DNA of 40,855 nt from an uncultured Butyricicoccus sp. (GTDB taxonomy: Bacteria; Bacillota; Clostridia; Oscillospirales; Butyricicoccaceae): contig CALWBL010000016.1 in the NCBI GenBank assembly GCA_944376065.1, forward strand, positions 1-40,855. The letters are read 5' to 3'. Each line of letters starts with the position of its first letter. The first letter of the stretch is position 1. The notes under the pieces are model-generated. The model worked only from the letters and a program-made list of their open reading frames with translations. It was not told where the DNA came from and did no database searches. A program made the position numbers and the translations under genes. Shown piece after piece: positions 13,970 to 33,955 of the stretch.

Positions 13970-14180
13970 AGCCATACCTCCGATATTATGTAAAACTTTT
14001 TGAGTTTTGTTATTTTGACATGTGCATGATACATCCGATGTATATTTAGAGTCAAGACTTTATATACAATCTGTCAAAAAATAAAAATGGCAAGTTTATT
14101 TAGACGATTTTTATTTATAGTAATATCGTTGAAAATGGGTATAGCCTAAATAGACATATATTATATGTAAAAAGTTGTAA

Positions 14181-14263: not shown

Positions 14264-14321
14264 ATAAATGGAGACAGTTAAGCCTATATAAGTAAACCAA
14301 AGAATTAGGAGGGTTACTTAT

Positions 14322-14522: not shown

Positions 14523-14524
14523 TG

Positions 14525-14533
14525 TGGTATAAT
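14525..14533 (+). promoter_or_regulatory. Extended -10 promoter for the recombinase
   Basis: TGGTATAAT matches the extended -10 consensus TGNTATAAT, 33 bases before the recombinase start. No good -35 element is present, as is usual for extended -10 promoters. Confidence 0.5.
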
Positions 14534-14566
14534 CATACTATTAACTAATACAGGGAGATTAGTAGA

Positions 14567-16162: not shown

Positions 16163-16207
16163 TTTTAGAGTAATAATGGCTGAATTATGCTATTATTACT
16201 CTTTTTT
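16162..16207 (+). repeat. Copy 1 of a 46-bp direct repeat that is an intrinsic terminator
   Basis: Stem GAGTAATAATGGC / GCTATTATTACTC followed by six T. It follows the recombinase stop. It matches the sequence at 18261-18306 at 45 of 46 positions (G/A at 16182). Confidence 0.85.
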
Positions 16208-16307
16208 ATTTAATAATTACAAAATATGTTATTTATTGTAGCGTAATGATTCGCTTGAATGTTAATATTTTTTATGATAGACTGAGATTGGTAAAAGCAT
16301 TTTAAAA

Positions 16308-17552: not shown

Positions 17553-17570
17553 TAATGTGGGTGAACAAAA

Positions 17571-18235: not shown

Positions 18236-18260
18236 AAACTTTATTTGATAAATAAATATC

Positions 18261-18306
18261 ATTTTAGAGTAATAATGGCTAAATTATGCTATTATTACTC
18301 TTTTTT
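18261..18306 (+). repeat. Copy 2 of the 46-bp terminator direct repeat
   Basis: Same hairpin as at 16162-16207 with one base different, now following the SLH gene. It ends about 40 bases before recognisable cotJC sequence, like the gap between the other recombinase stop and its cotJC junction. Confidence 0.85.
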
Positions 18307-18342
18307 TTGTTTGTATTCTTATTTTATTTATAAAGGTGCATT

Positions 18343-18701
18343 ATAGACAATGATATAGGTACTGAAGAACTTGCTCATCAAGAAATGATTGCTGCTATTG
18401 TGTATCAATTAACAAGAAACCTTACTCCAGAGCAAATTAAAAGAGATGGATTTGATGCATATTTTGTAGACCATACAACAGGAATTTTTCCACAGTCAGC
18501 ATCAGGTTTGCCATTTAGTACAGCTTCACTTCAATGCAAGGGTGACGCTATTACAGACCTGTTTGAGGATTTAGCAGCAGAACAAAAAGCGCGTACAACT
18601 TATGATAATTTACTAAGGCTGATTGATGACCCAGATGTTAGAGACCCTATAAAGTTTCTTCGTCAGCGTGAGGTTACTCATTTCCAACGTTTTGGTGATG
18701 C
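18343..18701 (+). pseudogene. cotJC: Spore-coat Mn catalase CotJC, middle segment (gene interrupted on both sides)
   Basis: Encodes the central two thirds of a CotJC-type manganese catalase of the spore coat. It runs from DIGTEELAHQEM through YFVDHTTGIFPQSASGLPF and EDLAAEQKARTTYDNLLRLI to REVTHFQRFGDA. The metal ligands Glu and His of TEELAH, Glu of AEQKA and His of EVTH are present; the first ligand Glu, in the N-terminal GELAA-like motif, is absent with the missing ~57 codons. After the core at 18689-18701 the frame runs into foreign DNA and adds 20 residues before TAG at 18760. The true C-terminus lies at 33837-33955 in the matching frame. As it stands the gene cannot give a working enzyme. 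Confidence 0.85.
18689..18701 (+). other. Left attachment core (attL), GTTTTGGTGATGC
   Basis: Thirteen bases identical to 33837-33849. Both copies lie in cotJC coding sequence and in the same codon phase (TTT GGT GAT), so recombination between them rebuilds the gene exactly. Confidence 0.85.
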
Positions 18702-18851
18702 AAGTCAGGAAGATTGTAGCAAAATTCTAAGCGACAAATCGGAAGTTGCAGCAGCAAAATAGTAGGCATATGGGAATATTATCGTAGTCTTGTTTTGCAC
18801 TCTGCTTGACGAGACATATAGATTATAACAAAAGTTAAAGGAGGAACAGAA

Positions 18852-19445
18852 ATGAAAAGGAAAATGATTGCTATGCTGGTGGCAATGTTGCTTCTATCTG
18901 GTTGCGGTGGGAATGAAAAAGATGAAGGAAAAGAACAAATCGATTCTTCGGTAAGCTCACTGATGGACAAAAAGCAGGTCGACCAAACAGATATAGCAAA
19001 ACAAGAAGAAACTGCGTTTCCAGGAAGCTATACTGTACCAGATGGGTGGATAAAATCTGATGAATATTCTACGGAAGAAAAGATTTTCTACTTTGAGGAA
19101 GGTCATGAGCAGGACGAATTTCCGGATAATATTTCTATCAATGTTGGAACAAACCAATACAGTTTGGAAAATCACACAGAGTTCAGAAATGCCATTGTTC
19201 AACAGCTTCTTATGCAGCTAGACGGTGTGGATGCTCAGTTAAACGGGGATGGCACCTATACAGAACAGGGTTATGTGCTTTATATTTTTACGATAGATGA
19301 TGGTGATGCAGTAACAAAGCAATATTACATTGTTAAAGATTACGGATTTTGCTTAGTTCACCTTACAAACTTCACAGGCTCAGAAAGCACATATGGGGCA
19401 GCTCAAACCATAGTGGACAGCTTTGTTTGGAAATCTGAAGATTGA
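18852..19445 (+). CDS. Lipoprotein of unknown function
   Basis: A 197-residue exported lipoprotein. AAAGGAGG precedes the ATG. The signal peptide MKRKMIAMLVAMLLLSGC ends in a clear lipobox (LLSGC), so Cys18 is lipidated and anchors the protein outside the cell membrane. An acidic linker to about residue 50 is followed by a domain (FPGSYTVPDGWIKSDE ... AAQTIVDSFVWK) like the small alpha/beta domains found in many Firmicute lipoproteins, of unknown function. It is the first gene inside the cotJC element, and the attL junction is 150 bases upstream. Confidence 0.8.
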   Translation: MKRKMIAMLVAMLLLSGCGGNEKDEGKEQIDSSVSSLMDKKQVDQTDIAKQEETAFPGSYTVPDGWIKSDEYSTEEKIFYFEEGHEQDEFPDNISINVGTNQYSLENHTEFRNAIVQQLLMQLDGVDAQLNGDGTYTEQGYVLYIFTIDDGDAVTKQYYIVKDYGFCLVHLTNFTGSESTYGAAQTIVDSFVWKSED

Positions 19446-19555
19446 TGAGAGCGATTTTGTCAGTTTTATTATACTTGAACACTATGAGAAATTCAACCAT
19501 ACCAAAGTAAGGTAACAATGATACTAGGAAGATAGCAAAAAAAGTCTAAAACTTG

Positions 19556-19573
19556 ATAGCCTAAATTAGACAT
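19556..19573. repeat. Short sequence resembling one at 14141-14157
   Basis: ATAGCCTAAATTAGACAT here and ATAGCCTAAATAGACAT at 14141 differ by one inserted base. GTCTAA at 19543 also pairs with TTAGAC at 19566-19571. Significance unknown. Confidence 0.3.
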
Positions 19574-19690
19574 GTCTTAAAAAATCCCGTATCCATAAAA
19601 ATCGCTATTGAGAATAAGAAAAAAATATAGTAAACTGTTAATAAGATGAGAGGGTTTTCCTTATGATATAAAACAGAAAGGGTGGGAAAT

Positions 19691-20347
19691 ATGTTCGGTT
19701 TTAATCCCATTGGAGTAGGTTTAACCTATACCTATTTATCCGGCACAACACAAAATAATGTCAATCCTAGCAGTATGAAAATACAGGAGCAAGTAAATAC
19801 TGCCAAGACTAATCAGTCATCTGTCAATCAAGGTTCTTCACAATTCACTCTGTCCAATGAACCACAACTTCCTACTATTCGCGAAGGTGTAGACCCTATT
19901 GAATTTGCGGTTAGAAGTCGTATTAAAAACTTGAATAATGATAGTACTCTGAATGCTCAAGAGAGTCAGAAAATGCAACAAACCAAATCTCCTCAAGAAG
20001 TTATGGAAGATGCTGAGTGTCAGACCTGTAAAAAACGTAAATATCAAGACGGTTCAGATGACCCAGGTGTCTCCTATCAGACACCGACCAATATTGCACC
20101 TGAGCAAGCGGCATCTGCTGTAAGAGGTCATGAACAAGAGCATGTAGTTCGAGAGCAAGCGAAAGCTAAGCGTGAAGGCAGAGAGGTTGTTAGTCAGTCT
20201 GTCACCATTCACACGAGTATTTGTCCCGAGTGTGGAGATGTCTACGTCTCTGGAGGTACTACACGAACTACCACCCGAGCAAGTGACATTGCGCAACGGT
20301 TTCAACAAAAGCAACCTGAATCCAGCATTTTCCAAGGAGTTGCTTAA
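19691..20347 (+). CDS. Putative zinc metalloprotease with HEQEH motif
   Basis: A 218-residue protein. The C-terminal half is a conserved unit found widely in bacteria as 'putative metalloprotease': AECQTCKKRKYQDGSDDPGV, then QTPTNIAPEQAASAVRGHEQEH, where HEQEH matches the HEXXH zinc site, then ICPECGDVYVSGG. Cys pairs CQTC and CPEC could bind a structural metal. The N-terminal ~80 residues are Gln-, Asn- and Ser-rich and probably disordered. The start is ATG 19691 after AAAGGGTGGG; an in-frame GTG at 19682 lies in that site. Relatives are often SprA-related. Protease activity is inferred from the motif only. Confidence 0.7.
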   Translation: MFGFNPIGVGLTYTYLSGTTQNNVNPSSMKIQEQVNTAKTNQSSVNQGSSQFTLSNEPQLPTIREGVDPIEFAVRSRIKNLNNDSTLNAQESQKMQQTKSPQEVMEDAECQTCKKRKYQDGSDDPGVSYQTPTNIAPEQAASAVRGHEQEHVVREQAKAKREGREVVSQSVTIHTSICPECGDVYVSGGTTRTTTRASDIAQRFQQKQPESSIFQGVA

Positions 20348-20510
20348 TAAATTATTATATTACGCATAAAGAAACCATGTATAAACTAGACTTTACTGTA
20401 TATCATAATGATATAAATATGAAGTTTGCCGCTGGATGGAATATGACCAGCTTTTGAGATATAGCTAATTATTATTCCTATATAAAAAAAGAGCATAATT
20501 AGATAAACTG

Positions 20511-20534
20511 AACCGCACAATAAATTGTGCGGTT
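20511..20534. terminator. Bidirectional hairpin between convergent genes
   Basis: AACCGCACAA and TTGTGCGGTT pair perfectly around a 4-base loop, with TTTTCTCATTT on the + side. It separates the metalloprotease gene from the DUF4230 gene. Confidence 0.7.
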
Positions 20535-20537
20535 TTC

Positions 20538-21167
20538 TCATTTATATATAAACTTTATCTCATATTTATTCATATCATACTCAGCGCTAAAAAAACTTGT
20601 CAATATTGTTTCTGCGTTAATTTTAGCATTGTCATATAACCCATTTTTAATTGCATTATTTTGTGCATTTTGTTTTAGTTTTTCTTGAGCTTTATTATTT
20701 TCAGATAAAGAAATTTTAGTAAAAATACTTTCGTATTCATGGTATACTTCAAATGAACCATCAACTATTTGATTGCTTAAAATTTTAACTTTAGGTAATG
20801 TAACTGTTATAATATTATCTTTTATATTCCATTTTATATCTTGAAAATCAAAACCCGCTTTTATTATTACATCGTAACTGTAAATATATTTACTCTGTGT
20901 AAATGGTATTTCTATTCCCCATAATTCTCTAGCACTTTGGATCACATTAACTTCAGTGCAGTAAACCGATTGAGTCACTAACTCACCAATATTTTCAAAT
21001 CCTATTTCTGTTGTTTTTGTTTTGCTTATTATATAGTTCCCAGTTTCTGCTGTAAGTAACATAATGACGATAATTGCTATTAAAAATATAATAATATATT
21101 TTTTGGCAGTTTTTTTTATAATATATTCAACTTTTCGTTTAGAATATATAAGTTTATTTTCTTGCAT
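20538..21167 (-). CDS. DUF4230 membrane-anchored protein
   Basis: A 209-residue protein with a short basic N-terminus, one membrane segment (YIIIFLIAIIVIMLLT, about residues 25-42) and an extracytoplasmic domain matching DUF4230: ELVTQSVYCTEV near the start, YSYDVIIKAGFDFQDIKWNI, then ITVTLPKVKIL, and a C-terminal helix. The start is ATG 21167, with CAGGAG 9-10 bases before; a TTG two codons upstream is less likely. Single gene, convergent with the metalloprotease and upstream of the thi terminator. Function of the family is unknown. Confidence 0.75.
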   Translation of the reverse strand: MQENKLIYSKRKVEYIIKKTAKKYIIIFLIAIIVIMLLTAETGNYIISKTKTTEIGFENIGELVTQSVYCTEVNVIQSARELWGIEIPFTQSKYIYSYDVIIKAGFDFQDIKWNIKDNIITVTLPKVKILSNQIVDGSFEVYHEYESIFTKISLSENNKAQEKLKQNAQNNAIKNGLYDNAKINAETILTSFFSAEYDMNKYEIKFIYK

Positions 21168-21341
21168 AAACAAACTCTCCTGTCGCTTATTAAAACAAAT
21201 CCTTATATTAAATTATAGCAACCATATGCAGAATATATGTTGTTTATAATTGTTACTTTTTATATTCCTGGCATACATATGTTTTTTTACATTTTGTAAC
21301 TTCACCATATTCAATAGCACTTATTGATTGTATGACTTAAA

Positions 21342-21383
21342 AATTAAAGGTTTGCTGTCTATACAATACAGACAGCAAACCTT
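21342..21383 (-). terminator. Intrinsic terminator of the thi operon
   Basis: On the minus strand AAGGTTTGCTGTCT pairs with AGACAGCAAACCTT and is followed by TAATTTTTAAG. It lies about 90 bases after the last thi gene. Confidence 0.8.
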
Positions 21384-21470
21384 CTGCTTATCAAGTTATA
21401 TAAAATTTATAAATTTAATTGAAGATAAAAGTTTATATTATATGACTTATATCAAATTAAACATCTCATA

Positions 21471-22040
21471 TTAAATATTCAATTCATTCATATAATACTG
21501 CATCATACATATTCCATATGCACCATTATTTAAAGCTAGATGTTCATTTTCTGGATTTATTCCGCCAATAGCATAAACGGGAATACGAACATTTTGACAT
21601 ATATCTTTTAAAAACTCCAGCCCTCTTGCGGGTAAATCATGCTTACAAGCAGTGTTAAAAATATGTCCTGCTATTATGTAATCTGCACCTAGTTTTTGAG
21701 CTGTAATTGCCTCATCAATAGAGTGAACTGAAACACCCAAAAGTGCAACATTTTTTTTAATTTCTGGATTTTCTATAAGCTTGTAAAGTGGCACATGCAA
21801 GCGATTGATATTTAATGCTTGACAGGCTTTAAAATAAGAATGAAGTATGAGCCTATCTTTTAAAATAGGTTTTATTTTACTTGCAAAGCTTATATATTCA
21901 TCTAAAGTTAAATCCTTTTCACGCAGAATAAAATATTCAATATCATTTCTATGGGAAAGTGATTTCAATCGCTCTATAAAATTATCTTTGCAAAGTTTTC
22001 TATTGGTAATACAAATTCTTTTACACATAAACATAATCAT
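21471..22040 (-). CDS. tenI: TenI-type thiazole tautomerase (ThiE paralogue)
   Basis: A 189-residue TIM-barrel protein of the ThiE/TenI family. I call it TenI rather than thiamine-phosphate synthase for three reasons. The ThiE signatures ND and DGVHLGQ are replaced (LHSYFKAC, NRLHVPLY). The stretch SVHSIDEAITAQKLGADYII closely follows TenI. The catalytic His of TenI is conserved in AGHIFNTACK. TenI aromatises the product of ThiG to the usable thiazole carboxylate phosphate. It is the last gene of thiS-F-G-H-tenI. The start overlaps the end of thiH; ATG 22040 and ATG 22028 are both possible and translation is probably coupled. ThiE activity is not excluded without structure or assays. Confidence 0.75.
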   Translation of the reverse strand: MIMFMCKRICITNRKLCKDNFIERLKSLSHRNDIEYFILREKDLTLDEYISFASKIKPILKDRLILHSYFKACQALNINRLHVPLYKLIENPEIKKNVALLGVSVHSIDEAITAQKLGADYIIAGHIFNTACKHDLPARGLEFLKDICQNVRIPVYAIGGINPENEHLALNNGAYGICMMQYYMNELNI

Positions 22041-23175
22041 TCATAACTGGTTGCAAGCCACGCTCACAAATTGCTTGTAAAACCTCATCAACATTTCTTG
22101 TATCTGCAATTTCAAACTGGTCATCACCTTGTTCCGCTTCATCAGTATGACCGCCAATACCAGTTGATACACCAGCAGAAATTTTAGTTGCACAGATATT
22201 TATAACATTATCTCTAAATTCTGCGCGTTCACGGGTGGATATAGTTATATTTGCAAATGGTAAAAACAATCTATATGCACACATAACCTGTAAAAGTTGG
22301 CGCTCATGCACATCTTTAGGATTTATTTTATCGTTATTTATTATTGGGCGAAGTCGTGGGCATGAAATAGAAATTTCTGCATGAGGATACTTTCTTTGCA
22401 GTAAATAAGCATGCATACCTGTTGCAAAAGCATCTTTTCTAAAGTCATCTAGCCCTAAAAGCGCAGCAAAAGCAACTCCACGCATACCTCCCATTAAAGC
22501 ACGTTCTTGAGCCTCAATTCTATATGGAAAAATACGTTTATGTCCTGCTAAATGCAAGGTTTCATATTTATCTGAATTATATGTTTCCTGAAAAACGGTT
22601 ACATAATCTACACCGCATTTATGTAAATATTCATATTCATTTGAATTCATTGGATAAACTTCTATTCCAACCATTTTAAAATATTTTTTTGCTATTTCGC
22701 ATGCTTTACCTATATACTGAACATCACTCATATTTCGGCTTTCACCGGTTAAAATAAGTATTTCCTCGAGTCCTGTTTTAGAAATTGCCTGCATTTCTTT
22801 TTCTATTGCATCATAATCGAGTTTGGCACGTCTAATTTTATTATGGCAGTTAAAACCACAATAAACACAGTAGTTTTCGCAGTAGTTAGAAATATAAATC
22901 GGTGTAAAAACATAAATATTATCGCCAAAGAATTGACGTTTCTTTTCTCTTGCACGTTTTGCAATCTGTTCTAAAAATGGCAAAGCAGCAGGTGAAAGTA
23001 AAGATCCAAAATCATGGGGGGCTAAAACATCAGCTTTTAAAGCATTTTGAACATCTTTTTCTGTATATTTATTTTGATTATAGCATTTATATGCGTTTAT
23101 GACTTTATTTCTAATTTCAGGATTTATCTGCTCCATATCAGGCAAATATTCCATATGATTTAATCGTTTTTCCAT
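22021..23175 (-). CDS. thiH: 2-iminoacetate synthase ThiH
   Basis: A 384-residue radical SAM enzyme that cleaves tyrosine to dehydroglycine (2-iminoacetate) for thiazole synthesis; it replaces the oxygen-dependent ThiO in anaerobes. The iron-sulfur cluster motif CX3CX2C is seen as CENYCVYC around residue 95. The downstream GEIEVYPMN-type segment and the C-terminal biotin/thiamin-synthesis-associated region (SISCPRLRPI, STRERAEFRDN) are intact. The start is ATG 23175 because GAGGAG lies 7 bases before; this site overlaps the stop of thiG. A longer frame from 23190 begins inside thiG and is less likely. Confidence 0.93.
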   Translation of the reverse strand: MEKRLNHMEYLPDMEQINPEIRNKVINAYKCYNQNKYTEKDVQNALKADVLAPHDFGSLLSPAALPFLEQIAKRAREKKRQFFGDNIYVFTPIYISNYCENYCVYCGFNCHNKIRRAKLDYDAIEKEMQAISKTGLEEILILTGESRNMSDVQYIGKACEIAKKYFKMVGIEVYPMNSNEYEYLHKCGVDYVTVFQETYNSDKYETLHLAGHKRIFPYRIEAQERALMGGMRGVAFAALLGLDDFRKDAFATGMHAYLLQRKYPHAEISISCPRLRPIINNDKINPKDVHERQLLQVMCAYRLFLPFANITISTRERAEFRDNVINICATKISAGVSTGIGGHTDEAEQGDDQFEIADTRNVDEVLQAICERGLQPVMNDYVYV

Positions 23176-23186
23176 ATTTTCACTCC

Positions 23187-23954
23187 TCAATCTGCAAGAA
23201 ATCCAGTTAGCGGAGAAGATGCAGCCGCACCGCTATCAAGCACACGGCCTAAGCCAGCAAGATATGCAGTTCTTCCTGCCTCTATTGCCTTGCCAAAAGC
23301 CTCAGCCATTTGAGGAATATTGCCTGCTGTTGCAATTGCAGTATTTGCCATAACAGCTGCACAACCCATTTCCATAGCTTCACATGCTTGACTAGGTCTG
23401 CCAATACCTGCATCAACAATAATAGGTAAATCTATTTCATCAATTAAAATTTTTATGAAATCACGAGTAGCTAAGCCTTTATTAGATCCAATAGGTGCAG
23501 CAAGCGGCATAATACAGCTCGCACCTACATTTGCTAAATCTCTTGCAACATTTAAATCAGGATACATATAAGGCATTACAACAAAACCATCATTTGCCAA
23601 GATTTCAGTGGCTTTTATTGTTTCTGTATTATCTGGTAAAAGATATTTAGAATCTCGCATAATCTCAACTTTTACAAAATTACCGCAACCACAAGCCCTT
23701 GCAAGTTTTGCAATTCTTACTGCTTCTTCTGCTGTTCTTGCACCAGATGTGTTTGGAAGTAAGGTTATGCCCTCGGGAATATAATCTAAAATATTATCTG
23801 TTTCAGAGTTTGCACGTCTTAAAGCCAGTGTTATAATTTGTGCTTTTGCATGTTTTATGGCTGCGTCTATTAGATCAAGTGAATATTTGCCAGAACCTAA
23901 AACGAATCTTGAAGTAAATTCATGTCCACCTAGCTTAAAAACATCTTTATTCAT
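23187..23954 (-). CDS. thiG: Thiazole synthase ThiG
   Basis: A 255-residue TIM-barrel enzyme that forms the thiazole ring from deoxyxylulose 5-phosphate, dehydroglycine and the ThiS thiocarboxylate. The Schiff-base lysine lies in NFVKVEIM (about residue 95). The phosphate-binding loops ([37 protein letters not shown]) are normal, as is the length. AGAGGTG precedes the ATG. Operon order thiS-F-G-H-tenI, with 14 bases to thiF. Confidence 0.95.
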
Positions 23955-23968
23955 AAAAAATACACCTC

Positions 23969-24601
23969 TTAAACATTATTTTCATTTAATAATAATCTCA
24001 TTATCATAGTAGCCTGATGAGATGCACAAACAGCAACTCTGGGTGACATAAGTCCTAAACCATCTGAAATATCACTTTGGCCATCTCCGCAGATATATAA
24101 ATTTTTAATTGGATTTGTAGTTTTTATAAGATTTGCAGTGTTAAAACCGGCCATTCCATTGCCCGAAACAATTTTTACATCTTTTAAAGTGCTTAAAAGA
24201 GTTTGTATAAGCATGGCTTTTTGGTCTGGCTTATCAAATGCTTCACATATAATATCGCAACCAGAAAATAAGCTTACCGCATTTTCACTTGTAATTTTAA
24301 CTTGGTGTAACTGATAGTTTAAATATGGATTTATCTTAATTAAATGTTCATATAAAGCGGTGGTTTTAGGTCTACCAATATCAGAAAGAACATAATTTTG
24401 ACGGTTTATATTTGTTATATCCACATTATCAAAATCAACTAAAATCAGTTTGCCTATTCCCAGTCTAGTAAGATAAACAGCTATATTTGAACCTAAACCA
24501 CCTAAACCTGCAATACCTACACAGGAATTTGCAAATTTTTTCTGGATTTCAACTCCATGACGCTCAGCCAAAGCATTAAATAATTCTTTTTCTGTAACCA
24601 T
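23969..24601 (-). CDS. thiF: ThiS adenylyltransferase ThiF
   Basis: A 210-residue E1-like enzyme that adenylates the C-terminal glycine of ThiS so that sulfur can be loaded. The nucleotide-binding loop [11 protein letters not shown], the acidic strand [10 protein letters not shown] and the NINRQNY segment are as in the family. This is the short ThiF form common in clostridia, without the long C-terminal extension. Its ATG overlaps the stop of thiS by one base (TGATG), so translation is coupled. No CXXC zinc pair is evident. Confidence 0.9.
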
Positions 24602-24798
24602 CAGCCACCACCTACAAAATGCACTATTTCTACTACATCACCATCTTTTAAAAATATGTTATTAAAATTTTCTCTTGATAGTATCTCGCCATTATATTCA
24701 ACTGCTACTCTGTCGGCTGATAAATTTTGTTTTTGTAAAAGCTCGGATATATTTCCCGAAAAATCGGTTAAAAATTCACCATTTACTTTAATTTTCAT
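24601..24798 (-). CDS. thiS: Sulfur carrier protein ThiS
   Basis: A 65-residue ubiquitin-like protein ending in Gly-Gly, the end that becomes a thiocarboxylate and donates sulfur to ThiG. Typical stretches are MKIKVNGE, VAVEYNGEILSRENF and DGDVVEIVHFVGGG. The start is ATG 24798, with AAGGGG just upstream; a longer frame to 24831 would begin inside the leader hairpin. First gene of the thi operon. Confidence 0.93.
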   Translation of the reverse strand: MKIKVNGEFLTDFSGNISELLQKQNLSADRVAVEYNGEILSRENFNNIFLKDGDVVEIVHFVGGG

Positions 24799-24814
24799 AT
24801 GAAAACCCCTTTCT

Positions 24815-24871
24815 AAAATAAAAAGCACCACAAAGAAACTACACCCGTGGTGGTGTACCCCTTTGTGATGC
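24815..24871 (-). promoter_or_regulatory. thi leader hairpin with terminator features and an alternative pairing
   Basis: On the minus strand GCATCACAAAG pairs with CTTTGTGGTGC (one G-U) and is followed by TTTTTATTTT, 17 bases before the thiS start codon. An inner stem TACACC/GGTGTA forms inside it. CACCAC in the loop can instead pair with GTGGTG of the 3' arm, which would break the terminator. No TPP riboswitch consensus is seen here. A weak promoter (TTGACA at 24918-24913, poor -10) lies just upstream, so the hairpin is close to the transcript start. Confidence 0.5.
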
Positions 24872-25000
24872 TTTAATCACTCTACTAATAAATTAACATA
24901 ACAAACTTTAATTGTCAAGAATTAAAAAATTTCTGATGCCAAGTTACACGGTGAATAAACTGATAACATAATAGATTTAAAATATAAGAATAAAAAACCA

Positions 25001-25029
25001 TTGACAAGCATAAAAAATAGTGATATAGT
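25001..25029 (+). promoter_or_regulatory. Sigma-A promoter of the trp operon
   Basis: TTGACA (25001-25006), 17 bases, TATAGT (25024-25029). The T-box leader begins a few bases downstream. Confidence 0.85.
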
Positions 25030-25035
25030 TTAATC

Positions 25036-25370
25036 AGTTAAACCGTTGAGGCGGGGATAACGGCGATGATGCCTTTACAGAGAGTCCGTTAAGCTGAGAG
25101 TCGGGCAAGAAACAAGTCGTCAAATGGGCCGCTGAGGGTGCAGTCAAATGTGTTTCTTATAACACAGAGTATTCTGCAACGTGTAGACATACGTTAGTTG
25201 TCAGGGGTATGATAGTACCCTGTTAAGTGCATGGTGTTTTTATACCCATGAATCAAGGTGGTACCGCGGATAAGTGATTTTATTCGTCCTTGACAGAAAG
25301 TGTTTATTTCTGTTGAAGGGCGTTTTATTACACTCCTTTAACAGAAATGTTAAAGGAGTTTTTTATTTTT
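25036..25370 (+). promoter_or_regulatory. Trp-specific T-box leader with two tandem terminators
   Basis: The T-box sequence AAGGTGGTACCGCGG is at 25255-25269. Stem I carries AGAGAGTC and the GCTGAGAGTC region. The most likely specifier is the UGG in AAATGGGCC near 25120-25125, matching tRNA-Trp. CAAGG (25254-25258) and CCTTG (25288-25292) form the antiterminator. Terminator 1 pairs 25285-25299 with 25307-25322. Terminator 2 is a perfect 11-bp stem, 25333-25343 with 25348-25358, followed by T6-A-T5. Uncharged tRNA-Trp should let transcription through. Confidence 0.93.
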
Positions 25371-25383
25371 GGAGGTCGTTAAA

Positions 25384-26850: not shown

Positions 26851-27416
26851 TGATTTTACTTATAGATAATTATGATAGCTTTTCTTATAATCTTTATCAG
26901 CTTATAGGAGAATTTGAGCCAAATATTAAAGTTATAAGAAATGATGAGATGACAATAAATGAAATTTTAAAATTAAAACCTGATGGAGTTATCCTTTCTC
27001 CCGGTCCTGGACGTCCACAGGATGCAGGAATAACAGTTAAGGCAGCTTTAGAGCTTGGTAAATATATGCCTGTTTTGGGTGTGTGCTTAGGTCATCAAGC
27101 TATATGTGAAGCGTTTGGAGGTGTAGTTACTTATGCTGATGAACTTATGCATGGCAAGGCCTCAAATATTAAACTTGATTTAACGTGTAATTTATTTAAA
27201 AATTGCCCTCAAACAACACAAGTCGCAAGATATCATTCACTTATAGCAAAAAACTTGCCTGAATGTTTAAAAATCACCGCTTTAACTGATAAAAAAGAAG
27301 TCATGGCGGTTAAACATAAAGAATATCCTGTCTATGGTGTACAATTTCATCCCGAATCCATTTTAACTCCATACGGAAAGAAAATGCTTGAAAATTTCAT
27401 AAGGGAGTGTAAGTAA
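26850..27416 (+). CDS. trpG: Anthranilate synthase component II TrpG (glutamine amidotransferase)
   Basis: A 188-residue class I glutamine amidotransferase that supplies ammonia to TrpE. It begins [14 protein letters not shown]. The oxyanion strand is [12 protein letters not shown], the nucleophile Cys lies in [10 protein letters not shown], and the His-Glu pair in [10 protein letters not shown]. It overlaps trpE and trpD by single bases, so translation is coupled and production matched. It may also serve a folate synthase if the genome lacks pabA. Confidence 0.96.
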
Positions 27417-28432
27417 TGATTAAACAAGCTATTGAAAAAATAGTAAATAAAGAAGATTTAAGCTACGATGAAGCGTATACAGTTATGAATGAAATCATGA
27501 CTGGACAGACAACCGCAACACAAAACGCCGCTTTTCTCGCTGCACTTTCAACAAAAAGCACCAAAGCAGAAACAAAATTTGAAATTGCAGGCTGTGCAGC
27601 TGCTATGCGTGATAATGCGACAAGGCTGGAAACAAATATGGATGTTTTCGAGCTTGTTGGCACTGGTGGAGATGGTGCAAATAGTTTTAATATTTCCACA
27701 ACATCGGCTATCATTGCGGCATCTGGGGGCATGAAGGTTGCAAAACACGGCAACAGAGCTGCATCTTCTAAATGTGGTACAGCTGATTGCTTAGAGGCTT
27801 TAGGTGTAAATATTGAGCAAAGCCCTGAAAAATGCTTGGAGCTTTTAGAAAAAGCTAATATGTGTTTCTTTTTCGCTCAAAGATATCATATATCTATGAA
27901 ATATGTTGGTGCAATCAGAAAAGAGTTAGGTTTTAGAACTGTTTTTAATATTTTAGGACCTCTTACAAACCCAGCAAGCCCTAAAATGCAACTTTTAGGC
28001 GTTTATGATGAGTATTTAGTTAAACCACTTGCAGAAGTTCTAATAAATTTAGGTGTAAAACGTGGCATGGTGGTCTATGGTCAAGACAAACTAGATGAGA
28101 TTTCGCTAAGTTCTGCAACAACTATTTGCGAATTTAAAGACGGTTGGTTTAAAACATATGAGATAAAGCCAGAAGATTTTGGTTTTTCGCGTTGTACAAA
28201 AGCCGATTTATTAGGAGGTACACCAGAAGAAAATGCACAAATTACACTTTCTATTCTAAAGGGTGAAAAATCACACAAAAGAAATGCTGTTTTATTAAAT
28301 GCCGGTGCAGCTCTTTATATAGGTGGTAAAGCGCAAAATTTAGCAGATGGTATAAAGATGGCTGAAAATTTGATTGATTCAGGCAAAGCACTTGCAACTC
28401 TTGATAAGTTAATAGAAATTAGCAACAGGTGA
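27416..28432 (+). CDS. trpD: Anthranilate phosphoribosyltransferase TrpD
   Basis: A 338-residue enzyme that joins anthranilate and PRPP. The [14 protein letters not shown] loop binds [33 protein letters not shown] and the late DEISLS segment are conserved. Length is standard and no N-terminal amidotransferase is fused, since trpG is separate. It starts at the last base of trpG. Confidence 0.97.
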
Positions 28433-28436
28433 TAAA

Positions 28437-29219
28437 ATGACAATTTTAGATAAACTTGCAGACCATGCAAAAGAGCGTGTTAAGCTTTCAAAACAAAAAA
28501 TATCTCTGGAAGATATAAAAAAACAGGCTTTTTCAATACCAAAAGGTGATTTTGCATTTGAAAGAGCATTAAAAAATAAAGATTTTGCATTTATCTGCGA
28601 ATGTAAAAAAGCGTCACCATCTAAGGGAATTATTGCACAAGATTTCAATTATTTAGAGATTGCAAAAGAATATGAAAAATCTGGGGCTGATTGTATTTCT
28701 GTTTTAACCGAACCTAAATGGTTTTTAGGCAATGATGAGCATTTAAAACAAATATGTCAAAGTGTTTCAATTCCTTGCATTAGAAAAGATTTTACCGTTG
28801 ATGAATATATGATTTATGAGGCAAAAATTCTTGGTGCATCAGCTGTACTTCTTATATGCTCGATTTTAAATGAAACTCAAATTGAAAATTATATAAAAAT
28901 ATGTGATGATTTGGGAATTTCCGCACTTGTAGAGGCTCATAACAAAGAGGAAATACAAACCTCTATAAATGCAGGTGCTAGAATAATTGGTGTTAATAAT
29001 AGAAATCTAAAAGATTTTACTGTTGATACTAAAAACAGTGAAAATTTACGTAGGTTTGTACCAGAAAATATAATTTTTATAGCTGAAAGCGGTATAAACA
29101 ATTCAAGTGACATTAAAAATCTCAAAGATAGCAAAGTGAACGGCGTACTAATTGGTGAAACGCTTATGAAGGCCAAAAATAAACAACAAAAACTATTAGA
29201 ATTAAAATCACTACTATGA
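28437..29219 (+). CDS. trpC: Indole-3-glycerol-phosphate synthase TrpC
   Basis: A 260-residue TIM-barrel enzyme that closes the indole ring. Landmarks: ICECKKASPSKGII with the catalytic Lys, SVLTEPKWFLGNDEHL, IRKDFTVDEYMIYEA, NNRNLKDFTVD and AESGINNSSDIK. It starts 4 bases after trpD and overlaps trpF by 4 bases (ATGA). Confidence 0.97.
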   Translation: MTILDKLADHAKERVKLSKQKISLEDIKKQAFSIPKGDFAFERALKNKDFAFICECKKASPSKGIIAQDFNYLEIAKEYEKSGADCISVLTEPKWFLGNDEHLKQICQSVSIPCIRKDFTVDEYMIYEAKILGASAVLLICSILNETQIENYIKICDDLGISALVEAHNKEEIQTSINAGARIIGVNNRNLKDFTVDTKNSENLRRFVPENIIFIAESGINNSSDIKNLKDSKVNGVLIGETLMKAKNKQQKLLELKSLL

Positions 29220-29827
29220 CAAAAATAAAACTTTGCGGCTTAAAAAGCCTATCAGATATAGAGATAGTAAATAAATATCTGCCAGAATATATAGGTTTTG
29301 TATTTTGCGAAAAAAGCAAACGTTATATAAATATTAAAACAGCAAAACAGCTTAAAAACGCTTTAAATAACAATATTTCTGCTGTTGGTGTATTTGTAAA
29401 TGAAAGCCTTGAAGTAGTGGCACAGCTTTTAAATAATAATATTATAGATGTTGCTCAACTTCATGGAAATGAAAGCGAAGACTATATAAAAAATTTAAAA
29501 TCACTTACCAATAAACCCATAATTAAGGCTTTTAAGATTGAAAATACATCTGATATTAAAAGTGCAGAGAAAAGTTCAGCAGATTTTGTGCTTTTAGACT
29601 CTGGTACAGGTGGCACAGGTACAGCTTTTAATTGGTTACTTATAAAAAATTTTAACAGACCATATTTTTTAGCTGGCGGTTTAAATATAAATAACATAAA
29701 AACAGCACTGGATACACTTTCGCCTTATGCAGTAGATGTAAGCTCAGGCATAGAAACAAATAATATAAAAGACTTACACAAGATTAAAAATTTTATAAAA
29801 ATAGTAAGACAGCATGAAAGGATTTAA
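29216..29827 (+). CDS. trpF: Phosphoribosylanthranilate isomerase TrpF
   Basis: A 203-residue barrel enzyme catalysing the Amadori rearrangement before TrpC. It begins KIKLCGLKS with the catalytic Cys and has IGFVFCEKSKRYI, VAQLHGNESEDYI, LLDSGTGGTGTAFNW with the catalytic Asp, FLAGGLNINNI and AVDVSSGIE. Separate from trpC, as in most Firmicutes. It overlaps trpC by 4 bases. Confidence 0.96.
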   Translation: MTKIKLCGLKSLSDIEIVNKYLPEYIGFVFCEKSKRYINIKTAKQLKNALNNNISAVGVFVNESLEVVAQLLNNNIIDVAQLHGNESEDYIKNLKSLTNKPIIKAFKIENTSDIKSAEKSSADFVLLDSGTGGTGTAFNWLLIKNFNRPYFLAGGLNINNIKTALDTLSPYAVDVSSGIETNNIKDLHKIKNFIKIVRQHERI

Positions 29828-29833
29828 GCTGAA

Positions 29834-31024
29834 ATGACAAATAAAAATGGACGTTTTGGTATATATGGGGGTCAATATATTCCTGAAACGCTTATGAATG
29901 CGGTTATTGAGCTTGAAAAAGCATATAATTTTTATAAAAATGACGAAAATTTTAATAAAGAGTTAAATCATCTATTCAACGAATACGCTGGCAGACCATC
30001 AAGGTTATATTTTGCGGAAAAAATGACAAACGATTTAGGTGGTGCAAAAATATATTTAAAACGTGAAGATTTAAACCATACAGGTGCTCATAAAATAAAT
30101 AATGTACTAGGTCAATCTTTGCTTGCTAAAAAAATGGGTAAAACCCGTTTAATAGCCGAAACTGGAGCTGGGCAACATGGTGTCGCAACTGCTACAGCTG
30201 CCGCACTTATGGGCATGGAATGTGTGGTTTTTATGGGCAAAGAAGACACAATCAGGCAGGCACTAAATGTTTACCGTATGAAACTGCTTGGAGCTAAAGT
30301 TATACCAGTTACAAGTGGCACAGCGACACTAAAAGATGCTGTTTCTGAGGCAATGCGTGAATGGACTAACCGGATCGATGACACACATTATTGCTTAGGC
30401 TCAGTTATGGGACCTCATCCTTTCCCTACTATGGTACGTGATTTCCAAGCGGTAATATCTAAGGAAATAAAAGAGCAAATGCTTGAAAAAGAAGGACGTT
30501 TACCAGATGCGGTTATAGCTTGTGTTGGTGGTGGTTCTAATGCAATCGGAAGTTTTTATCATTTTATTGATGATAAAACTGTAAAACTTATAGGCTGTGA
30601 GGCTGCGGGTAAAGGTATAGACACTTTTGAAACTGCTGCAACTATAAATACCGGCACTCTTGGTATTTTCCATGGAATGAAATCTTATTTTTGTCAGGAT
30701 GAATATGGTCAAATTGCACCTGTTTACTCAATTTCTGCAGGACTTGATTACCCTGGAATTGGTCCAGAACATGCATATTTACATGATATCTCTCGTGCGG
30801 AATATGTTGCCGTTACAGATGAAGAGGCGGTTTGTGCATTTGAATATCTAGCGAGAATCGAAGGCATTATTCCTGCTATTGAGTCGGCTCATGCGGTGGC
30901 TCATGCTATAAAAATAGCACCTGAAATTGATAAAAACCAAATTATAGTTATTACAATATCTGGTAGAGGTGATAAGGATTGTGCAGCTATCGCCCGTTAT
31001 AGAGGAGAATATATAAATGAGTAA
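29834..31024 (+). CDS. trpB: Tryptophan synthase beta chain TrpB
   Basis: A 396-residue PLP enzyme joining indole and serine. The PLP lysine lies in [14 protein letters not shown], and the phosphate loop is [12 protein letters not shown]. Other marks are [28 protein letters not shown] and the C-terminal SGRGDKD. This is the standard TrpB1 type that pairs with TrpA. It overlaps trpA by 8 bases, which fits matched alpha and beta synthesis. Confidence 0.97.
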
Positions 31025-31787
31025 TATAAAATCAGCTTTTGAAAATGGTAAAGCATTTATAGCATTTATAACCTGCGGTGACCCAGATTTAGCAACAACC
31101 AAAAAAGCAATAAAAGAGGCTGTTGAAAACGGTGCAGATTTAATAGAGCTTGGAATACCTTTTTCTGACCCAAAAGCAGAAGGTGTTGTTATTCAAGCGG
31201 CGAATATAAGAGCCTTAGAAAACGGCATCACAACAGATAAAATATTTGATTTTGTGCGTGAAATAAGAGAGGAAATTAAAATACCACTTGTATTTATGAC
31301 CTATGCAAATGTTATATTTTCATATGGTGCAGAAAAGTTCATTTCACTTTGTAAAGAAGTAGATATTGACGGAATAATTTTGCCTGATTTGCCTTTTGAA
31401 GAAAAGGACGAATTTGAGCCTATTTGCAAACAGTATGGAGTTGATTTAATTTCTTTAATTGCACCCACATCTAAGGATAGAATAAGTAAAATTGCAAAAA
31501 ATGCAAGTGGATTTTTATATATTGTATCCAGTTTGGGTGTTACAGGCACAAGAACAGAAATAAAAACCGATTTAAAATCTATTATGAAAGTTGTAAGAGA
31601 AAATACAGATATACCATGTGCGATAGGCTTTGGAATATCCACACCAGAGCAGGCAAAAAAAATGTCAAATATTGCAGATGGTGTTATTGTTGGCTCAGCC
31701 ATTGTAAAACTTTTAGAAAAGCATGGAAAAGATGCACCATCTTATATAGGTCAATATGTTAAAAGTATGAAAAACAGCATACGTTAA
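31017..31787 (+). CDS. trpA: Tryptophan synthase alpha chain TrpA
   Basis: A 256-residue barrel enzyme that releases indole from indole-glycerol phosphate and passes it to TrpB. The catalytic Glu is in [10 protein letters not shown]. The second acid, usually Asp in DPxADGP, is Glu here ([10 protein letters not shown]), a conservative change that I have seen in clostridial TrpA, although the following Pro is also replaced. [18 protein letters not shown] and GFGIS loops are intact. Last gene of the operon, followed by a terminator. Confidence 0.95.
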
Positions 31788-31877
31788 AAATGAGTCTTTA
31801 TATGTTACTGTGCTTCTTTAGGAAATACATTTATTGCTATCATATAAACTTGACAATAAAAAGCAAAAGTAAAAGAC

Positions 31878-31911
31878 ATAGGCGTGTATTTAAATATACG
31901 CCTATTTTTTG
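31878..31911 (+). terminator. Intrinsic terminator of the trp operon
   Basis: ATAGGCGTGTATTT and AAATATACGCCTAT pair (one G-U) and are followed by six T. Confidence 0.88.
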
Positions 31912-31989
31912 TTGCATTATACTTTGTAGCGATACATAAAAAGTATAATTCAGACTCAATACATTTGTAATAGAATACTTATTGTTATT

Positions 31990-31998
31990 CATACGATA
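31990..31998 (+). promoter_or_regulatory. Candidate mother-cell sigma -10 element (CATACGATA)
   Basis: Fits the CATAnnnTA pattern of sigma-K and nearly the CATACAnT of sigma-E, 34 bases before the small accessory gene and recombinase. The -35 region is poor. Such short AT-rich motifs arise often by chance. Confidence 0.25.
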
Positions 31999-32031
31999 TA
32001 GTATCACAATTAAACAGAGGAGAGAAGCACT

Positions 32032-32196
32032 TTGACAAATAATACTTATTATCAAACCAACAATGAAACTATATCATTGGAAAAAATGCAATTTAATGTT
32101 ATAAGCAGGCGTCCGAAATATGATAAAAAAGAGTTTGAATCAATTAAAATGGATATTGAAAAAGAGCTTTTTTCAGTTTTTCAAAAATATGAATAG
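32032..32196 (+). CDS. Small accessory protein upstream of the element recombinase (54 aa)
   Basis: Starts at TTG 32032 after GAGGAG. Begins MTNNTYYQTNNETISLEK, then a basic stretch ISRRPKYDKKEF and an acidic helical tail. No known domain. It sits about 80 bases before the large serine recombinase, the position where many such elements carry a small accessory or directionality protein. Without experimental data that role is only a guess. Confidence 0.5.
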   Translation: MTNNTYYQTNNETISLEKMQFNVISRRPKYDKKEFESIKMDIEKELFSVFQKYE

Positions 32197-32278
32197 TATA
32201 ATCAAGAACTTCTATATAATAATATACCTTTTTGGGGCTGAATTGATTGTATAATGATGGAGGCAAATGAGTTAAATA

Positions 32279-33796
32279 ATGTATGATGCGCTTTATTCAC
32301 GTCAGTCAGTGGAGAAAGTTGACAGTATATCTATTGAAAGTCAACTAGAATATTGTAAATATGAAGCACATGGACACCCTTATAAAGAATATATAGACAA
32401 AGGATATAGTGGTAAAAATACAAATCGTCCTGCTTTTGAACAAATGTTAGAAGATGTCAAACAGGGTCTTATTTCAAGAGTTATTGTGTATAAACTTGAC
32501 CGTATTAGTCGTTCAATATTAGATTTTGCGAATATGATGGATATATTTATGAAGCATAATGTAGAATTTATTTCATCTACTGAACGCTTTGACACCTCAA
32601 CACCTATAGGTAGAGCAATGCTTAATATATGTATTGTATTTGCACAGCTAGAACGTGAAACAATTCAAAAACGTGTAACTGATGCCTATTATTCAAGATG
32701 TAAACGTGGATTTTATATGGGTGGGCGTATTCCTTATGGATTCACTAAAACTAACACTATTATAGATGGAATTAAAACATCTATGTATGTTCCGGTAGAT
32801 GAAGAAACCAAGCAAATACAACTTATGTTTTCGTTATATAAAAATCCTGCAAACTCATTAGGCGATATTATAAAGTTTTTCAAAGAAAATAGTATAAAAC
32901 ATTTGAGAGGAGGGACATGGAATACTGCGCGAATAAGTGAGATTCTTAAAAATCCTGTATATGTTAAAGCAGATGCAGATGTGTATGACTTTTTTAAAAG
33001 CAGAGGAGTAAATATTATAAATCCTGTATCGGATTTTACTGGGTATAATGGTTGTTATTTATATAAAGGAACAAAATCAAAGTCAAGAAAACAAAGTGAT
33101 TTAACAGAAAAAGAAATAGTACTTGCACCGCATGAGGGAATAATATCATCAAGTGATTGGATAAAATGCAGAATACGTTGTTTAAATAATCGTCAGTCAA
33201 CTCGCACTTGCAAAGCTAAAAATTCATGGCTTGTTGGCAAAGTTAAATGTGGAAAATGTGGCCACAGCCTAACCATTGCAAAATCAAATACTAAATGGCA
33301 TAGATATTTTATTTGTGGCACATCATTATCTACAAAAAAAGTAAAATGCATTGGAACAGGTGGTACAGTCTATGTTGATGTATTAGAAGAATATATGTTG
33401 AATGAAGTCAAAAGACGTTTAGCTGAATTTAAAACTCTTTCAAAATACGAAAAAAAGAAAAAAAATCCAAAAATAAATAAAAATAAGATACGTATTGCTG
33501 AACTTGATAAGGAAATAGAAGGTTTGCTTTCAAGAGTAATTAGTGCAAATGATATTCTGATGGAATATATCAATAGTAAGATTGAAGAACTAGATACAGA
33601 AAGAAAAAGATTACAAGAGGAAACTATATCACTTATACATAGTCAAAATAATAGTTCATCTAATGTAAATATAATATCAGATCATGTTCAGAAGTGGGAA
33701 CAAACTACATTTGAAGACAAACAAGCAATTGTTGATATTCTTATAAAAGTTATAACTATATCTGATGGAAATATAGTTATAACATGGAATATATAA
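32279..33796 (+). CDS. Large serine recombinase of the cotJC element
   Basis: A 505-residue integrase/excisionase. The catalytic domain begins DALYSRQSVEKVDSISIESQ with nucleophile Ser10 and has DKGYSGKNTNRPAF, VYKLDRISRSILDFANM and IVFAQLERETIQKR. It is followed by the recombinase domain (GGRIPYGFT), a zinc ribbon (KCGKCGHS ... YFICGTS ... KVKC) and a Lys/Glu-rich coiled coil near 390-450. The start codon overlaps a 10-codon frame (32254-32286) that carries the only GGAGG, 18 bases upstream, so translation may be coupled to that tiny frame. It ends 40 bases before the right attachment core, exactly where the integrase of the element should be. It should recombine the two GTTTTGGTGATGC cores and restore cotJC. 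Confidence 0.92.
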   Translation: MYDALYSRQSVEKVDSISIESQLEYCKYEAHGHPYKEYIDKGYSGKNTNRPAFEQMLEDVKQGLISRVIVYKLDRISRSILDFANMMDIFMKHNVEFISSTERFDTSTPIGRAMLNICIVFAQLERETIQKRVTDAYYSRCKRGFYMGGRIPYGFTKTNTIIDGIKTSMYVPVDEETKQIQLMFSLYKNPANSLGDIIKFFKENSIKHLRGGTWNTARISEILKNPVYVKADADVYDFFKSRGVNIINPVSDFTGYNGCYLYKGTKSKSRKQSDLTEKEIVLAPHEGIISSSDWIKCRIRCLNNRQSTRTCKAKNSWLVGKVKCGKCGHSLTIAKSNTKWHRYFICGTSLSTKKVKCIGTGGTVYVDVLEEYMLNEVKRRLAEFKTLSKYEKKKKNPKINKNKIRIAELDKEIEGLLSRVISANDILMEYINSKIEELDTERKRLQEETISLIHSQNNSSSNVNIISDHVQKWEQTTFEDKQAIVDILIKVITISDGNIVITWNI

Positions 33797-33836
33797 AATA
33801 AAATATACAATAAATTTATTCTACTTGATAGTGCAT

Positions 33837-33849
33837 GTTTTGGTGATGC
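33837..33849 (+). other. Right attachment core (attR), GTTTTGGTGATGC
   Basis: Identical to 18689-18701. The following bases encode the C-terminus of CotJC in the matching frame. Confidence 0.85.
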
Positions 33850-33955
33850 GCTGCGTACTGTTCAAGAAAATTTGGATTCTAAAAACTACTATGCATATAA
33901 TCCAGAATTTGACATTCAGCCAGTACCACAGCCAAGAAATATGCCTAGAATTTAA
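33837..33955 (+). pseudogene. cotJC: Spore-coat Mn catalase CotJC, C-terminal segment
   Basis: Encodes FGDALRTVQENLDSKNYYAY and a short Pro-rich tail ending NMPRI, then TAA at 33953-33955. This is the normal continuation of REVTHFQRFGDA at 18701. It has no start codon or ribosome binding site of its own and no function unless joined to the upstream part. Downstream lies a Cys-rich coat-like gene, consistent with the original chromosomal context of a spore-coat locus. Confidence 0.85.

What the first reader, a model, noticed from the sequence alone, without database searches (positions are those of the whole stretch)
18689..33849. A 15.1-kb recombinase element splits the spore-coat catalase gene cotJC and can be removed precisely in silico
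The 13-mer GTTTTGGTGATGC is present at 18689-18701 and 33837-33849. The left copy follows the CotJC sequence REVTHFQRFGDA and the right copy precedes LRTVQENLDSKNYYAY, in the same codon phase. Joining them gives a normal CotJC C-terminus and removes 15,148 bp. A large serine recombinase ends 40 bp from the right core. This is the layout of skin-type elements that interrupt sporulation genes and leave during mother-cell development. I do not know of one described with this cargo.
Basis: partly seen in the sequence, partly recalled or inferred. Interest (0 to 1): 0.93.

Follow-up and report, generated by a model that had tools for sequence, protein, structure and literature searches.

The report
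Spore-coat gene with four recombinase docking sites
A short spore-coat enzyme gene in this bacterium is cut into three pieces by two DNA elements, and in dozens of related species the same gene is cut at one or more of the same four spots by elements whose recombinases fall into five families, each found at one spot only; the elements are predicted to leave when spores form, which would restore the gene.

Summary
The 13-mer repeat, reading frame, 15,148-bp removal and recombinase 40 bp from the right core all check. But cotJC is in three pieces: a second element (about 23 kb plus a contig gap, with defence genes) cuts it after codon 62, and its first 62 codons lie on contig C18. Joining all three pieces gives an intact 210-residue CotJC.

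The pattern recurs. In the window's family 38 of 87 genomes have split cotJC, at four fixed positions (58 junctions, 10 seen from one side only; 13 genomes with two to four positions). Each position lies within 8 codons of a metal-site residue. Forty-nine adjacent large serine recombinases form five clades, each confined to one position. Other families of the order show matches broken at the same places.

Split genes stay under purifying selection (omega 0.055; uninterrupted 0.048). A sigma-E-like motif precedes the small recombinase-adjacent ORF in 9 of 18 cases (13 of 395 controls; exploratory). Excision during sporulation is likely but untested. The genome's only TrpA and only full-length ThiG lie inside the 15.1-kb element.

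Closest precedents: skin, vfbin, gin and yin in spore formers, and multiply interrupted nifD in cyanobacteria.

The parts
1..18351 (.). Right part of element 1 (inserted at site B of cotJC); its left part is C18:4628-1 of the same genome, with a contig gap inside hsdR
   Evidence: defence-type matches; weak group II intron end at window 1-62 (22.8 bits, gathering 40) suggests why the contigs break; the C18-C16 join is inferred
14322..14522 (+). Small ORF (66 aa) before the element-1 recombinase; candidate recombination directionality factor
   Evidence: conserved in G002 and, more loosely, other site-B relatives; function inferred
14567..16162 (+). Large serine recombinase of element 1 (site-B clade), 2.2 kb from its junction in this genome
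   Evidence: Pfam Resolvase, Recombinase, zinc ribbon; tree; distance
18352..18361 (+). Right core of element 1, GATATAGGTA (other copy C18:4628)
18352..18701 (+). Middle piece of cotJC (about codons 60-176)
18689..18701 (+). Left core of element 2, GTTTTGGTGATGC
18702..33836 (.). Element 2 (site D of cotJC), between its two cores
21471..24831 (-). Cargo: thiS, thiF, thiG, thiH and a TenI/ThiE-type gene
   Evidence: the only full-length ThiG match in the genome
25369..31787 (+). Cargo: trp genes trpE, G, D, C, F, B, A
   Evidence: trpE (just under its NCBIfam cut-off) and trpD, TrpA; the other trp genes named by reading the translations; the only TrpA match in the genome
31970..31997 (+). Sigma-E-like site: ATA, 17 bases, CATACGAT, 62 bases before the small ORF
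   Evidence: promoter activity inferred
32032..32196 (+). Small ORF (54 aa, TTG start) before the element-2 recombinase; candidate recombination directionality factor
   Evidence: similar small ORF in 5 of 10 site-D regions; coordinates; no PHROGs match; function inferred
32279..33796 (+). Large serine recombinase of element 2 (site-D clade)
33837..33849 (+). Right core of element 2, GTTTTGGTGATGC
33837..33955 (+). 3' piece of cotJC with its stop codon

Best explanation
In this genome cotJC, the gene of a spore-coat manganese catalase, is cut into three in-frame pieces by two serine-recombinase elements, which would likely be excised in the mother cell during sporulation to rebuild the gene. 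Shown by sequence: the cuts lie at two of four positions (after residues 31, 62, 135 and 176 of 210) at which cotJC is cut again and again in relatives; each recombinase clade is found at one position only; the genes that are split today show no relaxation of purifying selection. Inferred: each recombinase integrates its element at a conserved attB that overlaps codons near a metal ligand, so the target is present in most sporulating relatives and its loss costs little during growth, because CotJC is made in the mother cell (recalled from B. subtilis). Inferred: a small protein encoded just upstream of the recombinase acts as directionality factor, is switched on by a mother-cell sigma factor, and turns the recombinase to excision in the mother cell only; the forespore keeps the elements. 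Inferred: the cargo is exchangeable (defence genes in element 1; thi and trp genes in element 2) and passes on through the spore although the mother cell discards it.
For: Three pieces join to an intact 210-residue frame. Uninterrupted orthologues exist: 17 verified in the family. 38 of 87 family genomes are split at four positions (count). All 28 junctions whose two sides lie on one contig are in gene order on one strand, as excision needs. A recombinase lies within 700 bp at 49 of the 53 junctions scanned, counting the window's element 1 at 2.2 kb. 49 recombinases: site label needs 3 changes on the tree, the least possible, shuffled mean 26.5. Omega 0.055 for 32 split and 0.048 for 17 uninterrupted genes; no stop in the columns of the pieces in 32 split genomes. 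G000 and G002: cotJC dS 0.90, omega 0.025, site-D recombinase dS 0.69, which fits a split as old as the species pair. SpoIVA in 69 of 87 family genomes, the window's included; 35 of the 38 split ones. Sigma-E-like motif before the small ORF in 9 of 18 windows, 2 of 18 antisense, 13 of 395 control ORFs, 0.76 expected from GC-matched controls.
Against: No direct evidence of excision. Several split genomes (G004, G011, G032, G040, G050) also have an uninterrupted, 33-38% identical paralogue that might stand in. B. subtilis without CotJC is said to show no apparent defect (PMC12122855, passage). Motif evidence is mixed: only 5 of 48 recombinases have a sigma-E-like site in the 160 bp before them; in 450-bp windows the antisense strand is nearly as rich (24 against 23 for the -10 pattern, 30 against 21 for the two-part pattern); the cotJ upstream region itself holds the pattern in 10 of 30; 9 of 18 small ORFs lack it; the pattern window was narrowed after earlier looks. 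The site-B recombinases of G000 and G002 (dS 0.34) are younger than the species pair, so some insertions are recent and could not yet show decay. Outside the family, G224 (pieces on opposite strands) and G171 (pieces 674 kb apart, reversed order) cannot be repaired by simple excision. Four of 53 scanned junctions showed no recombinase (G005 C, G017 C, G044 C, G050 D). Small ORF seen in 5 of 10 site-D regions only.
Confidence: 0.68

Rival explanations
1. Safe-harbour reading: cotJC is only a conserved and dispensable target; the elements leave when they transfer, not on a developmental cue, spores form without CotJC, and the pieces look intact because the insertions turn over fast and are young.
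For: Paralogue present in some split genomes; no apparent B. subtilis phenotype (passage); site-B recombinases younger than the species pair; both element orientations occur within a clade, which suggests repeated integration; motif evidence mixed.
Against: Omega is nearly the same in split and uninterrupted genes; the G000/G002 site-D pair and several site-A pairs have recombinase dS close to cotJC dS (for example G015/G025 0.93 against 1.11, G012/G015 0.88 against 0.90), so some splits look old; no stops in 32 split genes.
Confidence: 0.24
2. The pieces are made and work as separate polypeptides, or the gene is on its way to decay.
For: The pieces keep their frames.
Against: Every piece lacks some of the metal-ligand residues (alignment); inner pieces such as window 18352 follow an element end with a stop or no start; selection is as strong as in whole genes.
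Confidence: 0.06
3. Assembly artefact: the splits are misjoined or fragmented drafts.
For: Many of the genomes are drafts; the start of the window's cotJC is on another contig.
Against: 28 junctions lie within single contigs, including G011 (1 contig, 4.0 Mb), G007 (2 contigs), G003 (10 contigs) and G030 with all five pieces on one 480-kb contig, spans 4.4 to 52.7 kb between neighbouring pieces; the same positions recur with related recombinases.
Confidence: 0.02

Closest known systems
skin elements in sigK: B. subtilis, and C. difficile skinCd with CD1231 and CD1234 (PMC5025042; abstract and passages read)
   Same: Element with a large serine recombinase inside a mother-cell sporulation gene, precise excision restores it; in C. 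difficile a small directionality factor under sigma-E and SpoIIID confines excision to the mother cell.
   Different: One element at one site in a regulator gene; here four sites in a coat-enzyme gene, several elements at once, five recombinase clades, exchangeable cargo. Excision not shown here.
SPbeta in spsM, and vfbin (spoVFB) and vrin (spoVR) (PMC4191935; abstract start and passages)
   Same: Intervening elements in mother-cell genes; the SPbeta factor gene sprB has a mother-cell type promoter with an imperfect -35.
   Different: SPbeta is a prophage; element 2 has no phage match beyond its recombinase among the ten ORFs tested. One element per gene in these cases, as far as read.
gin in gerE of B. 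cereus ATCC 10987 (PMC5595907; abstract and passages)
   Same: Non-phage gene-intervening element, restored at sporulation; recombinase GirC with partner GirX.
   Different: 28.6 kb with three recombinases in one element at one site; here separate elements at separate sites.
yin in yabG of C. botulinum (PMC10747680; abstract read)
   Same: Prophage-like element in a sporulation gene, with integrated and excised forms in culture.
   Different: Described as not found in other strains or species; the cotJC pattern is spread over an order.
Interruption elements of heterocyst-forming cyanobacteria, nifD with up to four elements (PMC4874684; abstract start and passages)
   Same: Several elements in one developmentally used gene at fixed positions; xis genes tend to group by position; orientation of the xis gene can vary.
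   Different: Cyanobacterial nitrogen-fixation and other genes and their xis genes; here a spore-coat gene and large serine recombinases.
phi027 prophage beside a cotJC homologue in C. difficile (PMC11222575 and PMC12122855; passages)
   Same: A mobile element integrated next to a cotJC-type gene.
   Different: The homologue is described as lying downstream of attR, not as split.

Membership tests
Sporulation gene-intervening (skin-type) element | Lies inside a sporulation gene, and precise removal restores one reading frame | tested here: met
   Both elements together: 210-residue frame; element 2 alone restores only the C-terminal part
Sporulation gene-intervening (skin-type) element | Carries its own site-specific recombinase near an end | tested here: met
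   32279-33796, 40 bp from the right core; element 1: 14567-16162, 2.2 kb from its junction
Sporulation gene-intervening (skin-type) element | Host has sporulation genes | tested here: met
   SpoIVA in G000; only this sporulation gene was searched
Sporulation gene-intervening (skin-type) element | Directionality factor or recombinase under mother-cell control | tested here: inconclusive
   Motif before small ORFs in 9 of 18, mixed controls
Sporulation gene-intervening (skin-type) element | Excision in the mother cell during sporulation | not testable with these tools
   No reads or cultures
Prophage | Phage structural genes | tested here: not met
   Element 2: of its ORFs 18852, 19682, 20538, 32032 and 32279 only the recombinase matches PHROGs; the thi and trp ORFs were not given to PHROGs. 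Element 1 was tested in part only
Integrative conjugative element | Relaxase and transfer genes | not tested
   None noticed on reading the ORF list of 18702-33836, but no conjugation models were run
Multiply interrupted developmental gene (nifD type) | Several elements in one gene at fixed positions, recombinases grouped by position | tested here: met
   works like it, but the recombinases are large serine recombinases of a different host group

The most novel reading that the evidence does not exclude
cotJC is a shared docking gene of spore-forming bacteria of this order: five recombinase families each own one of four sites over its metal-ligand codons, four or even five elements can sit in one 630-bp gene, and the mother cell rebuilds the gene by several independent programmed excisions. 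The elements use the doomed mother cell as a place where they can leave without being lost from the lineage, which has made the gene a depot for exchangeable cargo, including a genome's only TrpA and only full-length ThiG.
Probability: 0.55. Interest if true: 0.92.

Novelty: new variant of a known kind. Interest (0 to 1): 0.86.

Why it matters
If true, it turns a handful of single cases (skin, vfbin, gin, yin) into a common habit of one large group of spore formers, with many natural replicates (58 junctions in 38 genomes here). It offers five recombinase clades with defined target sites in one gene, so one can test how large serine recombinases choose and keep a target and what their directionality factors are. 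It also warns that cotJC will look truncated or absent to annotation pipelines, and that defence and biosynthesis genes can ride on DNA that a mother cell discards.

Tried and rejected
One element in an otherwise whole gene: rejected when the 5' piece was found on C18. Element 2 as two tandem elements, because its left end differs from that of G002: no third core was found in the window, so it is treated as one. Sigma-E sites directly before recombinases: 5 of 48, not used. 450-bp windows: enriched against shuffles but nearly as much on the antisense strand, so not relied on. Riboswitches of the cargo: Rfam at gathering threshold listed only a tRNA in the window. Phage or plasmid origin: all recombinase matches are under 60% identical in both collections.

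Rows dropped or mended: the automatic site call marked too many D splits because Pfam matches end early; corrected by reading the frames. Of 32 loci first taken as uninterrupted, 14 were a 33-38% identical paralogue and were left out, and G001 was moved to the split set because it breaks at D. G035 was left out of the omega run (over half gaps), so 32 of 33 split rows. Three recombinase ORFs under 350 residues were left out of the tree (48 of 51 kept, plus L052). Ten of the 58 junctions are seen from one side only (G005 C, G013 A, G031 C, G032 C, G084 C, G035 B and C, G081 B, G001 D, G012 D). Five of the 58 junctions (G001, G013, G031, G032, G084) were not given to the recombinase scan. The 49 family genomes not counted as split were not all read as whole genes. 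The order-wide match table was cut off, so only 18 further genomes, picked for signs of splitting, were listed in detail, and their cuts are known from match ends only; they give no frequency. Pieces were found by matches to open frames, which favours undamaged genes.
Full report
Check of the observation. GTTTTGGTGATGC occurs twice in the window (18689 and 33837), and none of 100 shuffles gave two matches. The join keeps the reading frame and removes 15,148 bp. The recombinase ORF 32279-33796 ends 40 bp before the right core.

The gene is in three pieces. A search of the window's own genome (G000, 1.80 Mb in 18 contigs; the window is all of contig C16) with the Mn-catalase family found the middle of cotJC at 18352-18705 and its start on C18:4620-4805, minus strand. 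The two sides share GATATAGGTA; start, middle and 3' piece join to 210 residues without a stop. On C18 the start follows ORFs that look like cotJA and cotJB (by eye). Element 1 runs from C18:4628 to that contig's end and from window 1 to 18351, about 23 kb plus a gap. hsdR is broken at the gap, its first part at the end of C18 and its second part at the start of the window; window 1-62 is a weak group II intron match (22.8 bits, gathering score 40). The join of C18 to C16 is therefore inferred. Element 1 carries type I restriction-modification genes, a type II restriction enzyme and a few weaker defence-type matches.

Four fixed positions. In the genus (7 genomes) and the family (87 genomes) the same search showed cotJC in pieces again and again. 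Reading the pieces and searching 13 genomes for the short 3' piece gave four positions in the 210-residue frame: A after residue 31 (GG|PDGE), B after 62 (DIG|TEELAH), C after 135 (LAA|EQK), D after 176 (HFQRFGDA|LR). Of 87 family genomes 38 are split, with 58 junctions (A 11, B 16, C 20, D 11); 13 have more than one position (count). Ten junctions are seen from one side only. G030 has all four positions, its five pieces in order between 205,516 and 288,987 of one 480-kb contig, and recombinases of two different clades at B. All 28 junctions whose two sides lie on one contig are collinear and on one strand.

Beyond the family. An order-wide search (297 genomes) and a closer listing of 18 genomes picked for signs of splitting showed matches broken at the same profile positions in families f5, f11, f18, f21 and f22; these were not read base by base. 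Two of the 18 do not fit simple excision (G224, opposite strands; G171, 674 kb apart in reversed order), and G182 looks frameshifted rather than split. A Lachnospiraceae MAG (L052) with a recombinase 60% identical to that of element 2 has a cotJC piece that is bounded by non-cotJC sequence at B and at D.

Positions and metal ligands. Aligned to the solved Mn catalase 1jku, CotJC residues E35, E65, H68, E136 and H169 correspond to Glu35, Glu66, His69, Glu148 and His181. PMC11796326 lists His69 and His181 among the active-site residues of 1JKU, type EEEEHH (passage); which glutamates bind the metals is recalled. The four cuts lie 0.5 to 7.5 residues from the nearest of the five; random cuts do as well in 0.6% of draws, a measure chosen after seeing the sites. 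The likely reason is that these codons are the most conserved DNA of the gene.

One recombinase clade per position. Recombinases were sought within 700 bp of 53 junctions (and at 2.2 kb for element 1 of the window); 49 of the 53 have one. Of the 51 ORFs found, 49 lie within 160 bp and 49 have their 3' end towards the junction. A tree of 49 recombinases (48 of those 51, plus L052) has one clade for A (10), one for C (13), one for D (9) and two for B (11 and 6); the site label needs 3 changes, the least possible, against a shuffled mean of 26.5. The order of the deepest branches is unsure, but each of the five clades has full support. Within a clade the recombinase may sit at either end of the element. 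The site-D family is large: 5244 proteins at E <= 1e-30 among the 7997 candidates scored.

Selection. In 32 split genomes no stop occurs in the columns that the pieces own; since pieces were found as matches to open frames, badly damaged genes could have been missed. The codon-model omega is 0.055 for 32 split and 0.048 for 17 uninterrupted genes, junction codons masked. Between G000 and G002, both split at B and D, cotJC has dS 0.90 and omega 0.025; their site-D recombinases have dS 0.69 and their site-B ones 0.34. So the site-D split may be as old as the species pair, while the site-B element is younger or was exchanged. Several site-A pairs also have recombinase dS near cotJC dS, though some of these pairs differ in element orientation.

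Host. SpoIVA is found in 69 of 87 family genomes, in 49 of 52 good-quality ones and in G000; 35 of the 38 split genomes have it (the exceptions G015, G019 and G022 are 90%, 81% and 78% complete).

Control of excision. Small ORFs lie upstream of many recombinases: one of a shared pattern in 5 of 10 site-D regions (G000, G002, G036, G046, G085), and others at site C and at part of site B. In 18 windows of 110 bp before such ORFs, 9 hold ATA-N14-17-CATA (at -56 to -62 for C and D, -77 to -79 for B), against 13 of 395 other ORFs and 2 of 18 on the antisense strand; a nineteenth ORF was not found and is not counted. Against this stand the wider windows, where the antisense strand is nearly as rich, the 160 bp before the recombinases (5 of 48), and the cotJ upstream region itself (10 of 30). 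The result is exploratory, as the windows were narrowed after those looks. It resembles skinCd, where the recombinase is expressed broadly and the directionality factor is under sigma-E and SpoIIID (PMC5025042, abstract and passages).

Cargo. Element 2 carries thiS, F, G, H, a TenI/ThiE-type gene and trpE to trpA, among them the only TrpA and only full-length ThiG matches of G000. Of the six other genomes of the genus, four have full-length ThiG (G002, G003, G004, G006) and four have TrpA (G003, G004, G005, G006), on contigs or places without cotJC pieces nearby; only in G003 and G004 does the assembly show that these lie outside the cotJC elements. TrpA of G000 is 85% and 89% identical to those of G005 and G006, and 63% and 64% to those of G003 and G004. 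In G002 the site-D recombinase lies beside a homologue of ORF 19682-20347 with no thi or trp genes between. The cargo was thus probably captured by the element in the lineage of G000.

Literature. Nine full-text searches of the open PMC library (one search listed 8 of 22 papers) gave no paper that by title or abstract start describes cotJC as split. Most listed papers were not opened, and preprints and most subscription papers are not held, so this is weak evidence of absence. The nearest case of several fixed sites in one gene is nifD of cyanobacteria, interrupted by up to four elements (PMC4874684, passages).

Verdict. The finding is real and larger than stated. Positions, recombinase specificity and selection are shown by sequence; excision in the mother cell and the role of the small ORFs are inferred.

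Noticed in passing
window 16163-16207 and 18262-18308: A terminator-like sequence of about 45 bp occurs twice, flanking a 2.1-kb stretch (ORFs 16308-17552 to 17825-18235) that separates the element-1 recombinase from its junction; in G002 the related recombinase is 95 bp from the junction, so the stretch looks like a later insertion.
   Followed up: partly
window 1-62 and L004 1-120: hsdR is broken at the contig ends with a weak group II intron match on the window side.
   Followed up: partly
window 40577-40752: A tRNA at 40679-40752 is preceded by what looks by eye like a truncated tRNA copy.
   Followed up: no
window 18702-18850 and G002 L081: The left ends of the site-D elements of G000 and G002 differ although their recombinases are 82% identical.
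   Followed up: partly
G003, L127 and L054: The three cotJC elements of G003 carry, by eye, a translation-factor-like GTPase and a transporter (D), a two-component system (C) and a very large repeat protein (B); not tested with family models.
   Followed up: no
G006: A congener, 97% complete, shows no cotJC orthologue at all, only a weak match to a distant paralogue.
   Followed up: no
C. difficile R20291, literature only: Prophage phi027 is integrated just before a cotJC-type gene, which may mean that cotJC-like genes attract integration in other clostridia too.
   Followed up: no
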